From the NCBI GenBank assembly GCA_023053575.1, contig JAKZAP010000015.1:17246055-17310054 (forward strand): a stretch of DNA of 64,000 nucleotides. The letters are read 5' to 3'. Origin of the DNA: Branchinecta lynchi. Taxonomy: Eukaryota; Arthropoda; Branchiopoda; Anostraca; Branchinectidae. This document shows positions 10,250 to 51,391 of the stretch, piece by piece; position 1 is the first letter of the stretch, and every line of letters starts with the position of its first letter. The notes beneath the pieces were generated by a model. That model did no database searches, was not told where the DNA came from, and saw nothing but the letters and a program-made list of their open reading frames with translations. Made by a program: the position numbers and the translations under genes.

Positions 10250-11671
10250 TTTTTGGGATCCCAAAACGTAAGTGGAGGGATACCTATGACATCGCAAAAG
10301 TTGTCCGTCTGTCCGTCCGTCCGTCCGTCCGTCTGTAAGCACGATAACTCTCGAAGGGAATGAGATATTTTGATGAAACTTGGTGTGAGGGTTCGTTGGG
10401 TCGTCGGACCAGTCAAGTTCGTAGATGGGCTTTGTAGCTCTACATTTAGGGGTGGGGGAGGGGATTCAGATTAAGGGACAAACAAAATGTTTTGAAACAG
10501 CTAATGTGATAGTCGATTATGGGGTAAGAAGACATGCTGAACACGATGGTGAAAACCGTTTTGTCATCGGACAAGTAGTTCGCCCGGAATCCGGCCAAAA
10601 CCGGAAAGTTTGTTGAAAGTAAAAGTTTTATTTGAAGTTGATTAGATGTCCGATTGAGGGGTACGAAGACATGCTGAAGACGATGGTGAAAATTATTTTC
10701 TCGACGGACAAGTATTTCGCCCGGAATCCGGCCCAAACCGGAAAGTTTGTTGAAAGTAAAAGTTTTATTTGAAATTGATTAGATGTGCGATTTAGGGGTA
10801 GGAAGACATGCTGAAGACGATGGTGAAAACTATTTTCTCGATGGACAAGTCTTTCTCCCGGAATCCGGCCCAAACCGGAAAGTTTGTTCAAAGTAAAAGT
10901 TTTATTTGAAGTTGATTAAATGTTCGATTTAGAGGTAGGGAGACATGCTGAAGACGATGGTGAAAACTATTTTCTCGATGGACAAGTATTTCGACCGGAA
11001 TCCGGCCCAAACCGGAAAGCTTGTCAAAATTAAAAGTTTTATTTGGAGTTGATTAGATGTTCGATTTAGGGCAAGAAGACATGCTGAACACTTATGTGAA
11101 AACAAGTTTCTACCCGGACATGTAGTTCGTCCGGAATCCGGCCAAAACCGGAAAACTGTTGGAAGTCAAAGTTTTATTTCTAGTTGATTAGATAAGCGAT
11201 TTAGGGGTAAGAAGAGATGCTGAGTCCCTGTGTGACAATCGTATTTTACCCGGACATATAGCTCGACCGGAATCCGGCTGGAATCGGAAAATTTGTTATA
11301 AGCTAAATTTCTATTTGAAGTTGATTAGATGTGCATTACTGGGGAAAGAAGATACCCTGATTTCGTCTTTGAGCTTTCTTTTTTCGCCGGACAAGTAGTT
11401 CTGGAGTTCGGCCGGAACCGGGAAATTGGCAGAAGTGGCAGGAAGTTTTCGTCAAAACAGATATGACTTATAGGGGTAAACACACATGCTGAATCCAAAT
11501 CTGAACTTGGTTTTCTCAGGTGATTAGCTATTTGGCCTTAATCTGTTTCTGAATTTTAATTGTAAAAATGTTTAAGGAGTCTGGCGAAGACTGGATCTGG
11601 CTAAGACAAGACCCAGTTGTCTGGATCAGATATTGAATTTTTGGGATCCCATCGAAACCTTTGGTCTTGTT
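10250..11671 (+). mobile_element. Family B repeat, copy B1, with internal tandem units
   Basis: The left end is the palindrome TTTTTGGGATCCCAAAA followed by CGTAAGTGGAGGGATACC, ATGACATCGCAAAAG and a CCGT microsatellite (10309-10333). Then come about six tandem units of about 137 bp, each with AAGTTTTATTTGAAGTTGAT, AGAAGACATGCTGA, GGACAAGTAGTTCG and GGAATCCGGCC. The right end repeats the palindrome as TTTTTGGGATCCCATCGAAA and finishes CCTTTGGTCTTGTT. No protein is encoded. B2 follows after seven bases in the same orientation. Confidence 0.85.
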
Positions 11672-14399: not shown

Positions 14400-14437
14400 T
14401 GGACCACCTACTCTTAACAAGTGCCATATGAGCTCGT
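14400..14437 (+). repeat. Family A right-end fragment
   Basis: AACAAGTGCCATATGAGCTC and TAGCTCTTGTT match the right end of family A. Confidence 0.5.
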
Positions 14438-14522
14438 AGCTCTTGTTTTTCAATCTTATGAAAAACCGTACTGAGGTACCATTATAACAAGCCAACGAGT
14501 TATAAGATTTAAGGCATGATGA

Positions 14523-48121: not shown

Positions 48122-48615
48122 CTTTAAACTCCTGAAACGACATTGATTCCGTCTTGACTAACACGGAATTTAGCTCGATAGCTCTCCGGAGTGACGTGAT
48201 TATTTTTTCAGGATCGAGTTTTTCACTGCCGCAAAATCGGTGAGTTGCGCGTGTGATAAATTCGCTATCGCTTCCAGCGCTTTCCCAGAAAGTAATGGCA
48301 TGAGTTTTAGAACCTTATTTGAATCGTCCCATGAACACAAATGTGCTGCATTTTCGAAGCCCGTAAGAAAGAGATCAATATCATTCTTTTCTGTCATTTT
48401 TTTGTAAGCTAGGCTCTTTTGAACGCGGGAGCCCTGTAATACGGTGTAACAAGACATCGCGGTCCGATGCTAATTGTTCGATTTGTTTACTGTGCGCGTC
48501 TTTGATGAGTTCCACTTGATCTGAATGGGACGATTTCAGCTCTTCCATCATCGTATCAAATTTGTTTACTAATGCTAGAACTGCCTGTTCCATTATTTCG
48601 TTTGATAGTTCGTTT
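48122..48615 (-). pseudogene. LTR retrotransposon gag: coiled coil and capsid N-terminus
   Basis: The minus frame begins KNELSNEIMEQAVLALVNKF, continues with a heptad-rich segment, then shifts frame into MTEKNDIDLFLTGFENAA and LMPLLSGKALEAIANL, the N-terminal half of a Ty3/Gypsy-type capsid. A further shift leads to VTPESYRAKFR and SFQEFK, where the 637-bp insert interrupts. Several frameshifts show decay. Confidence 0.8.
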
Positions 48616-48619
48616 TTAT

Positions 48620-51018
48620 GGCACTTGAGCATACTCAAGTGCCATATAGCGATCGTAATTTCTGTCGGTCTGTCGGTCTGTCTGTCTGTCGTTCTGTCGT
48701 TCTGTCGTTCTGTCGGTCTGTCCAGGTTTTGCTAGTTTGGGCACTTCCACACAAGCTAGGACGATGAAACTTCACAGGCATATCAGGGACCCGAGCAGAT
48801 CAACTTACAAATAATCACTTCCCCAATCCAACTTTCCCCGGATCCGGGAGTCCGGAAACTGTAAAGTAAAACGGGACCAAAAAGTAAAACGGGAGCAAAA
48901 CAAAACGCTGGCCGAAGGCGGGATCGAACCAAGAACCTTTGGGTTGACAGTCTAGTATTCTACCACTGAGCTATGCGACCATGTATCAAAAAGCGAATGC
49001 GGGAATATTTACGGTTTAAAGATGGTTAGTCCAAGTCAAACAAATCTAGGTAAACGTTTGGCAGGAATATCAGCGAACCGACCAGATTAACTTGGATATA
49101 ATCATATTCCGTATCCGATCATAGTGGGGGGAGTGGAGGGATGGGAAATCCGAAAACTATTAACATGCATAACTTTGGAAAGGGTAATCAGACATACGTG
49201 AAACTTGACCTTTGTGTTGCCAGTCCCGTTTTCTACCACTGAGCCATGCTATGATGTATACAAAGCGAATGCGAGAATAGATACGGTTTAAAGATGGTCA
49301 GTCCAAGTCAAACAAATCTAGTGAAACTAGTGAAACGCTTAGCAGGAATATCAGGGAATCGACCAGATTAACTTGGATATAATCATATTCCGGATACGAT
49401 CATAGTGGGGGGGTGGAGGGATGAGAAATCCGGAAACGACGGTCTGTCGGTCTGTCCCGGTTTTGCTAGTTTGGGCACTTCCACATAAGCTAGGACGATG
49501 AAACTTGGCAGGCGTATAAGGGACCGAACCAGATTAACATGGAAACAGTCACTTCCCCGATCCGGCCATCGTGGGCGGGGGGGGGGGTGGAGCAACAAGA
49601 AATCCGGAAACTAGTAACATGCATAACTTTAGAACGGGTAGTCGGACTTGCGTGAAACTTGACATATATCAAGAACAATTGCCGATAACTGGGGGCGGGG
49701 GGGGAGCTGGAGGGGGGCACCCAAAACCTCGTGAAACGCTTGCACATAAGCTAGAACGATGAAACTTGGCAGGCGTGTTGGGAAACCGACCAGATTAACT
49801 TGGAAATAATCATTTCCCCGATCCGGCCATCTTGGGGGCAGTGGAGGGATGGGAAATCCGGAAAGTAGTAGCATGCCTAACTTTTGAACGGGTAATCAGA
49901 TAGGCCTGAAACTTGACATATGTCAAGAACAAGTGCTTCTGAAGCTCAATTTCAAATCCGGACCAGATCCGATAACTGGGGGGGGGGCTGGAGGGGGCAC
50001 CGGAAATCTCATGAAACGCTTCCACATAAGCTAGGACAATGAAATTTGGCAGGCATATCAGGGAACCGACCAGAAGAACTTGGAAATAATCACTTTCCCC
50101 ATCCGGTCATTGTGGGAGGAGTGGAGGGATGGGAAATCCGGAAACTAGTAACATGCATAACTTTGGAACGGGTAATCAGACATGCAAGAAACTTGACATA
50201 CGTCAAGAACAAGTGCTTCAGATGCTCAGTTTCAAATCCGGACCAGATCCGATCACTGGGGGGGGGGAGCTGGAGGGGCAACCGGAAATAGGGTGAAACG
50301 CTTCCAAATAAGCTAGCACAATAAAACTTGACAGGCATATGAGAGAACCAACCAGATTAACATGGAAATAATCGCTTCCCCGATCCTGCTATCGCGGGGG
50401 GGGGGGAGGGAAGGGGAATCCGGAAACTAGAAACATGCATAACTCTGGAATGGATAATCGGACATGCATAAAACTTGACAATTGTGAAGAACAAGTGTCT
50501 CAGATTTTCAGTTTTAGATCTGGACCAAATCCGAAGAGAGGGGGATTAGAGGGGGGACCGGAAATGTCGTGAAATGTTTAGGGTCGATGGATCGGGATGT
50601 CACAGTAGTGGGGTTGGAAGGGGTTTTCCCGGATTTCCGGTGATCACGAGTTAGGGTACTTCGAGGGGTACTTCCACATGTACTAGGACCATGAAACTTG
50701 GCAGACATATTAGGCACTCTTCCAGGTCAACTTGAAAATAGTTCTTTTCCCGATCCGATGATCATGGGGTAGATTCTATTGACATGCATAACTTTGGAAC
50801 AGGTGATCAGACGTGCATGAAACTTGTCAAGTGTCAAGAACAAGTGACTCAGATGATCAATTTCAAGTCTGGAACGGATCTGATAACATCGGGAGGAGCT
50901 GAAGGCTCTCTTGATGCGCTTAGAGTCGAGAGATCGGGATGGGACTTGGAGGGAAGAACAAGCATAAGCCATAGATACATTGTAGAGGCTTAACGGCCTG
51001 CCATTCAATTTGCAAATA

Positions 51019-51049
<31 letters not shown>

Positions 51050-51389
51050 GACAAAAAACAGGACCGATCGTGTAACAGTGGGGGGAGTTGGAGGGGGTTT
51101 TCCCTAATTCCGATGATCACGAGTTAGGGTACTTCCAGATGTGCTATGACCGTGAAACTTTGCAGGCATGTTAGATTGGCTTGAAAATATAGTCCCTCCC
51201 CCGATCCGATCATCGTTGGAGGAAGATACAGTTGTCAATGAGTGGTATAACCATTTCAGATCTACTAGATCAAGCCCATTTTCTGATGAAATGAATATCG
51301 GGAGAGAGATCCAGCCTTGAAAACTGCAAACCGTATCTGACAAACATGCTAACTGTTCTTACAAGTGCCATATGAGCTTTCAGCTCTTG
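48620..51389 (+). mobile_element. Family A, complete copy A4, with defined borders
   Basis: TTAT flanks both sides (48616-48619, 51390-51393). Removing the element and one TTAT restores the gag frame of the host LTR element. The left end is the hairpin GGCACTTGAG...CTCAAGTGCC followed by ATATAGCGATCG and a CTGT microsatellite (48660-48723). The interior holds diverged units, 258-280 bp apart in the best-preserved part, marked by AGCTAGGACGATGAAACTTG (48755, 49487, 49746, 50026, 50306, 50680, 51134). G runs of 8-13 lie between them. The right end is ACAAGTGCCATATGAGC...AGCTCTTG. No protein is encoded. Confidence 0.88.
48909..48980 (-). pseudogene. tRNA-like sequence (anticodon position GTC)
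   Basis: Read on the minus strand, GGTCGCATAGCTCAGTGGTA has an A-box, and GGTTCGATCCC matches the B-box consensus. The acceptor arms GGTCGCA/TTCGGCC pair except at one position. The anticodon and T stems are poorly paired, so a working tRNA is unlikely. A related 5' half recurs at 49226-49256 together with the same upstream flank, so it is part of a duplicated family A unit. Confidence 0.65.
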
Positions 51390-51391
51390 TT

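What the first reader, a model, noticed from the sequence alone, without database searches (positions are those of the whole stretch)
48620..51389. Family A: complete element with hairpin ends, 4-bp TSD and G-run tandem units
Its borders are fixed because removal at TTAT restores the gag frame of the interrupted LTR element. The left end is a GGCACTTG hairpin; the right end repeats AAGTGCCATAT and adds an AGCT hairpin. It lacks protein and does not match the end rules of Helitrons or classical TIR elements. At least five more copies or fragments occur here, and left ends lie beside TTTTTAT, suggesting a target preference.
Basis: partly seen in the sequence, partly recalled or inferred. Interest (0 to 1): 0.75.

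Follow-up and report, generated by a model that had tools for sequence, protein, structure and literature searches.

The report
Parasitic DNA copy of a Helentron
This 2.8-kb repeat is a gene-less hitch-hiking copy of a known class of rolling-circle jumping gene (a Helentron), and a protein-coding relative with matching ends sits in the same genome; it is an ordinary kind of element, with some useful detail about how it picks its target sites.

Summary
The element is real and well bounded, but not a new class. Twenty of 20 fetched full-length copies share both ends. The "4-bp TTAT TSD" is coincidence: 1 of 20 right flanks begins TTAT. Paralogous empty sites show insertion inside T-runs, without duplication. 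The anatomy is that of a HINE, the non-autonomous Helentron kind that includes DINE-1 and pearl: subterminal inverted repeat with an adjacent inverted partner, GTCY-type microsatellite, central tandem units, second subTIR, 3' palindrome. Three copies of an autonomous Helentron (15.8-17.0 kb) with the same terminal signals are in this genome; the C4 copy also has the microsatellite and 281-bp G-run units. Its 2,787-aa frame carries Rep, PIF1 helicase, AP-type endonuclease and, unusually, an N-terminal USP-type deubiquitinase domain. It is a sister subfamily rather than the proven direct driver. Exact 3' ends, all subfamilies together, number 11,926. New detail: a rule VTTTT^T fits most flanks and head-to-tail junctions read, and bears on a T-assignment that the key paper left open. 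New member of a known kind.

The parts
48616..51389 (+). whole non-autonomous element, minimal unit TTATGGCAC...CTCTTG (2,774 bp); because of T ambiguity equally TATGGCAC...CTCTTGT = 48617-51390
   Evidence: 20 of 20 fetched copies share both ends; best-matching empty sites give a net gain of 2 T
48613..48617 (+). left T5 run: target T-run plus the first element T(s)
   Evidence: empty sites L048 and L049 have GTTCGTTTTTATC; filled site has 5 T left and 2 T right
48617..48627 (+). 5' subterminal inverted repeat TATGGCACTTG
48636..48646 (+). inverted partner CAAGTGCCATA, closing the 5' hairpin
   Evidence: DNA fold z -8.7
48661..48722 (+). TCTGTCGG / GTCY-type microsatellite; the same unit is in the autonomous C4 element
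   Evidence: TRF
48909..48980 (-). tRNA-like segment (A- and B-box-like stretches and anticodon position GUC are read by eye, labels recalled)
   Evidence: Rfam tRNA 26.7 bits, below gathering 29; aligned 72-nt segment in 20 of 20 copies; listed at E<=1 in 4 of 20 and at gathering in 3 of 20
49208..49264 (-). second, partial copy of the tRNA-like segment (direct repeat D14, 81%)
49697..50574 (+). about 3.1 tandem units of 280 bp with G-runs
   Evidence: TRF; the autonomous C4 element has 2.6 units of 281 bp
51362..51372 (+). 3' subterminal inverted repeat CAAGTGCCATA
51374..51386 (+). 3' palindrome GAGCT-TTC-AGCTC; the loop varies between copies and subfamilies, the stem was fixed in the pattern searched
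   Evidence: 11,926 exact matches with any loop, control 0

Best explanation
The element is a HINE: a non-autonomous, rolling-circle DNA transposon of the Helentron (Helitron2-like) type. SHOWN: fixed ends, no TSD, insertion inside T-runs, recent amplification (median pairwise divergence 2.5% among 20 copies), and an autonomous Helentron in the same genome with the same terminal signals, microsatellite and related tandem units. INFERRED from the family: an HUH Rep protein nicks at the 5' end, recognises the 5' hairpin/subTIR, one strand is peeled off with the PIF1-type helicase, the reaction ends at the 3' subTIR plus palindrome, and the strand is joined into a T^T step without duplicating the target. 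INFERRED from my flank counts: insertion usually falls after the fourth T of a run of five or more, VTTTT^T, so copies are left with 5 T on the left and n-3 T on the right. An existing copy's own TTTTTAT end is then itself a good target, so new copies stack at the ends of old ones.
For: Ends identical in 20 of 20 fetched copies. Partner ends: TTTTTATGGCACTTG-loop-CAAGTGCCATATAGCGATCG and ACAAGTGCCATATGAGCTCGTAGCTCTTGTT in 3 of 3 autonomous copies, 98.8-99.9% alike over their long alignments; the C4/C15 alignment runs from border to border, C4/C13 reaches the right border but its long alignment starts about 80 bp inside the left one. The C4 element carries TCTGTCGG x 8.8 and 281-bp units x 2.6; the HINE's first 217 bp match it at 84% and its last 31 bp at 90%. 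Protein: PF14214 Rep, PF05970 PIF1, Exo_endo_phos and DUF6570 all above cut-off; Rep, helicase and endonuclease motifs (labels recalled) align with three relatives; the two best of 368 hits are sea-cucumber proteins, 40-41% over the whole query region. Empty sites at three loci, best-matching empties: T5 to 5+2, T7 to 5+4, T6 to 5+3, net +2 T. Left T-run is 5 in 18 of 20 and 6 in 2 of 20. Junctions: 88 of 100 listed (of 154 found) have a pure-T gap: 2T 37, 3T 21, 4T 6, 5T 17, 6T 4, 7T 3, fitting insertion into a left T5 run (2T) or a right T-run (5T).
Against: The autonomous copies found are a sister subfamily, not the direct parent: 84% over the left end and a different 3' loop (CGT against TTC). 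The family's immediate driver may be another, perhaps decayed, Helentron. The VTTTT^T rule is loose: autonomous copies have 7, 7 and 5 left T; for the L020 site one empty relative has T6 (net +3) and for the L010 site one has T5A (L052, L054); one LTR empty copy has TCTTT (L050); 3 of 87 right flanks lack TT; the 3T junction class (21 of 88) is not predicted by T5 targets alone. Left-flank counts rest on 20 HINE copies and 3 autonomous ones, because the wider search did not complete. The lone 3' hairpin does not beat shuffles. No transposition was observed; the mechanism is by family.
Confidence: 0.96

Rival explanations
1. A novel class of element that makes a 4-bp TTAT target-site duplication.
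For: At this one locus removal at TTAT gives the observed empty site.
Against: 1 of 20 copies has TTAT on the outer right; 3 of 87 listed flanks outside one repeated cluster, 16 of 100 with it. T5AT or T6AT is on the left of 20 of 20. An autonomous Helentron has the same terminal signals.
Confidence: 0.01
2. A MITE or other non-autonomous TIR transposon moved by a cut-and-paste transposase.
For: Short inverted repeats near both ends; related pearl elements were first filed as MITEs (PMC7492417, passages).
Against: The repeats are subterminal and asymmetric, no TSD, 3' palindrome outside the right repeat, and the relative with the same ends encodes RepHel.
Confidence: 0.01
3. A HINE whose direct driver is a different Helentron subfamily with a TTC loop, not the C4/C13/C15 elements (a variant of the best explanation, not exclusive of it).
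For: Left end only 84% to the C4 element, different 3' loop; other, decayed or short Rep-like frames lie on C1 and C22.
Against: Terminal signals are otherwise the same; 8.5 kb downstream of one C1 Rep frame holds no matching end.
Confidence: 0.45
4. Head-to-tail junctions are rolling-circle read-through concatemers, not stacked insertions (concerns the junctions only).
For: 55 seamless CTCTTG-TTATGGCAC junctions; in L058 the first two units are 99.0% identical and of nearly equal length (2,709 and 2,701 bp).
Against: In 3 of 4 loci read, the joined units are different subtypes: L024 (2.9% apart, 613 gap positions; copy 1 is 0.75% from L026), L059 (about 0.75 and 1.35 kb), L060 (no mutual match). 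Stacking into T5 predicts both the 2T and the 5T classes.
Confidence: 0.2

Closest known systems
HINE / DINE-1 (non-autonomous Helentrons; Thomas et al. 2014, PMC4067079, passages and section 6)
   Same: subTIR of about 11-15 bp, inverted partner close to the 5' subTIR, microsatellite, central repeats, 3' palindrome, T-rich target, no target-site modification, autonomous Helentron in the same genome
   Different: New sequence family as far as I could check (no Repbase/Dfam here); left T5 in most copies read; tRNA-like insert; autonomous relative only 84% alike over the left end, where that paper reports >95% or 98% for its pairs
Cg_HINE of Crassostrea gigas, and pearl (Vojvoda Zeljko et al. 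2020, PMC7492417, passages)
   Same: 11-12 bp subTIR, left IR separated by 1-12 bp, GTCY/GTCC/GTCK microsatellite, satellite-like central units, palindrome after the right subTIR, oligo-T target, no TSD
   Different: 280-bp G-run units here, against ~160 bp units for pearl in that text; here an autonomous relative with shared ends was found, which that paper could not link for its elements
Helentrons with OTU or tegument-type (VTD) deubiquitinase (PMC9741609, passages)
   Same: RepHel plus AP-type endonuclease plus a deubiquitinase-type domain
   Different: The autonomous element here has a USP/UCH-family (PF00443) domain on the N-terminal side; the passages read name only OTU and VTD in Helitrons

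Membership tests
Helentron / HINE | subTIRs near both ends with palindrome at the 3' end | tested here: met
   as a lone fold the 3' hairpin does not beat shuffles
Helentron / HINE | insertion at TT / T-rich target without TSD | tested here: met
Helentron / HINE | autonomous element with the same ends encoding Rep, helicase and AP endonuclease | tested here: met
   sister subfamily, not direct parent
Helentron / HINE | HINE has no coding capacity; microsatellite and central tandem repeats | tested here: met
   longest ORF overlapping the element 93 aa; repeats. The ORFs were not searched against family libraries
Helentron / HINE | rolling-circle, single-strand mechanism | not testable with these tools
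   inferred from the family
canonical Helitron | 5' TC, 3' CTRR, insertion between A and T | tested here: not met
   ends TTATGG...CTCTTG in T-runs
TIR transposon / MITE | terminal inverted repeats flanked by TSD | tested here: not met
SINE retroelement | 5' Pol III head, A-rich or repeat tail, TSD | tested here: not met
   tRNA-like segment is internal and antisense; no TSD

The most novel reading that the evidence does not exclude
The family belongs to a Helentron lineage that carries a USP-type deubiquitinase where relatives carry OTU or tegument-type ones, and that inserts at a fixed place in a T-run, VTTTT^T. Each copy's own TTTTTAT end thus recreates a target, so copies stack head to tail at their left ends, youngest outermost.
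Probability: 0.5. Interest if true: 0.45.

Novelty: new member of a known kind. Interest (0 to 1): 0.33.

Why it matters
It settles an apparently unclassifiable repeat and gives a HINE/autonomous pair with thousands of ends in one assembly. Thomas et al. (section 6) state that it is unclear how the terminal Ts are shared between element and host. Here the empty sites (+2 T in the best-matching empties) and the 2T/5T junction classes give a specific, testable assignment. If active, the USP domain would be a further deubiquitinase type in Helentrons, supporting the idea that these elements need such an activity.

Tried and rejected
(1) 4-bp TSD: rejected on flanks of other copies. (2) I first read the 55 seamless junctions as rolling-circle concatemers; comparing the joined units went against this in 3 of 4 loci read, so I now favour stacked insertions. 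(3) A functional tRNA gene: ARAGORN found none in the window; in 20 copies Rfam lists 4 at E<=1 and 3 at its gathering score, so I call it a tRNA-like relic. (4) The 3' hairpin as a strong fold: not supported by shuffles. (5) Direct parent of family A on C1: 8.5 kb past one decayed Rep frame has no matching end. (6) A strict five-T left rule: autonomous copies have 7, 7 and 5. (7) Print searches: 'helentron'+'tRNA' (7 papers), 'helitron'+'ubiquitin carboxyl-terminal hydrolase'+'endonuclease' (1 paper), 'helitron'+'ubiquitin-specific protease'+'OTU' (2 papers), 'helentron'+'echinoderm' (2 papers). I read passages of PMC9741609 and PMC4067079 from these and only listings of the rest; none of what I saw describes a USP-bearing Helentron or a tRNA-carrying HINE. 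The library lacks most subscription papers, and Repbase/Dfam could not be searched.

Full report
WHAT IS THERE. The stretch 48620-51389 carries the features listed: a 5' hairpin, a TCTGTCGG microsatellite (48661-48722), G-run tandem units of 280 bp (49697-50574) and a right end that repeats CAAGTGCCATAT and adds GAGCT-TTC-AGCTC. The longest of 14 ORFs of 60 aa or more overlapping it is 93 aa. The window lies in an unnamed 575.7-Mb assembly of 216 contigs. A DNA search of it returned 59 match rows, of which 21 are full length (40 of 15,881 first-look candidates scored, so a lower bound). I fetched 20 of those 21. All 20 have the same left and right ends. Their pairwise divergence outside gaps is 0.6% to 3.4%, median 2.5%, so the family is young. 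Several further rows are a subtype lacking query positions about 499-1035.

ENDS AND TARGET. On the left, 18 of 20 copies have exactly 5 T before ATGGCAC and 2 of 20 have 6. On the right, T-runs after CTCTTG vary. One search found 1,127 right ends with the TTC loop and lists 100: 97 begin TT and 16 TTAT. Without 13 rows of one repeated cluster on C1 the figures are 84 and 3 of 87, with T-run lengths 2 (29), 3 (20), 4 (17), 5 (10), 6 (4), 7 (3), 8 (1), and 3 rows under 2. The proposed 4-bp TTAT duplication is therefore not a property of the family.

EMPTY SITES. The three other copies of the interrupted LTR element that one search found lack the insert: L048 and L049 read GTTCGTTTTTATC, L050 GTTCGTCTTTATC. 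For two other insertions (L020, L010) empty relatives were read too: T7 in L051 and L055 and T6 in L052 for L020; T6 in L053 and T5A in L054 for L010. With the T5, T7 and T6 empties the net gain is 2 T at all three loci (5+2 from 5; 5+4 from 7; 5+3 from 6); with L052 it would be 3. The element can then be written TATGGCAC...CTCTTGT inserted at T^T, with four host T to its left. I did not test the gag frame.

JUNCTIONS. Exact seamless junctions CTCTTG-TTATGGCACTTG occur 55 times, control 0. With a gap allowed there are 154, of which 100 are listed; 88 of those have a pure-T gap: 2T 37, 3T 21, 4T 6, 5T 17, 6T 4, 7T 3. The rule VTTTT^T predicts two classes: insertion into the T5 run at the left end of an older copy leaves 2T, and insertion into the T-run to its right leaves 5T. 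Of four 2T loci read, three join different subtypes (L024, L059, L060), and one (L058, three units) joins units 97-99% alike. The 3T class is not explained in detail; T6 targets or slippage would do it.

AUTONOMOUS RELATIVE. The Helitron-like Rep family PF14214 gave 9 matches in the genome. Three closely alike elements on C4, C13 and C15, of 15,789, 16,950 and 15,915 bp, begin TTATGGCACTTG-CC..-CAAGTGCCATATAGCGATCG and end ACAAGTGCCATATGAGCTCGTAGCTCTTG. The C4/C15 alignment runs from border to border; the long C4/C13 alignment starts about 80 bp inside the left border. The C4 element has TCTGTCGG x 8.8 and 281-bp units x 2.6 just inside its left end. Its single open frame, stop to stop, is 2,787 aa in C4 and 2,783 aa in C13, and is split in C15. 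Pfam: UCH/USP, DUF6570, Helitron_like_N, PIF1 and Exo_endo_phos, all above their cut-offs. Rep HxH, helicase and endonuclease motifs (labels recalled) align with three relatives. Of 368 proteins found, the best 120 are listed; the top two are from sea cucumbers, 40-41% identical over the whole query region (only the 7,986 candidates sharing most words were scored).

USP DOMAIN. None of the 120 listed relatives shows PF00443 in its precomputed domains; many show OTU (PF02338) or the tegument-type domain (PF04843). A search with the USP part among proteins of comparable total length found one protein, P0124, 26% identical, whose USP lies at its C-terminal end, where the others have the endonuclease; shorter or fragmentary relatives would have been missed by the length limit. 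The Cys, His and Asp boxes (labels recalled) align with USP12 of PDB entry 5k1a. The passages of PMC9741609 that I read name OTU and VTD domains in Helitrons, not USP. Activity is untested.

tRNA-LIKE PART. The 72-nt antisense segment 48909-48980 aligns end to end with the Rfam tRNA model (26.7 bits, gathering 29). An aligned segment is present in 20 of 20 copies, but Rfam lists only 4 of 20 at E<=1 and 3 of 20 at gathering score, and ARAGORN calls none in the window. It looks like a captured tRNA or tRNA-derived repeat that has been copied along with the element; whether it is transcribed is unknown.

COMPARISON. Thomas et al. 2014 (PMC4067079: passages; section 6) and Vojvoda Zeljko et al. 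2020 (PMC7492417: passages) describe the same architecture for HINEs. The element meets the features of the class that I tested and fails the tests for canonical Helitrons and TIR elements. What is left open is which subfamily is the direct driver, whether the T-run rule holds at all 5' ends, and why exact 3' ends (11,926) outnumber exact 5' ends (4,002 and 3,408 with two patterns) about three to one. Subfamilies with other 5' ends sharing this 3' end, or faster decay of the longer 5' signal, would both do.

CHANGES ON RE-CHECK.

Noticed in passing
G000 C4:9637352-9645712 (-), L056; C13 and C15 copies: Autonomous Helentron with a 2,787-aa frame bearing an N-terminal USP-type deubiquitinase domain with aligned Cys, His and Asp boxes, followed by about 10 units of a 42-aa charged repeat; one other USP-Helentron protein was found in the length-limited protein search.
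   Followed up: partly
window 48909-48980 and 49208-49264 (-): tRNA-like segment present in 20 of 20 fetched copies of the family, plus a partial second copy.
   Followed up: partly
genome-wide: Exact 3' ends (11,926) are about three times as many as exact 5' ends (3,408 and 4,002 with two patterns).
   Followed up: no
C1:15296878-15472787: Cluster of 13 listed 3' ends with near-identical flanks, in the same region as four decayed Rep-like frames.
   Followed up: no
targets of L020 and L010; e.g. C5:8668372-8670674: Empty relatives of both targets occur together; the L020 target belongs to a unit repeated about every 867 bp in short arrays on many contigs.
   Followed up: no
window 10250-10340: TTTTTGGGATCCCAAAA palindrome followed by a GTCC microsatellite: looks like a different HINE-type 5' end; a 3' end with the autonomous CGT loop lies downstream at 14418-14447.
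   Followed up: no
C4:9635914-9635936: A HINE abuts the 3' end of the autonomous C4 Helentron through a 5T junction.
   Followed up: partly
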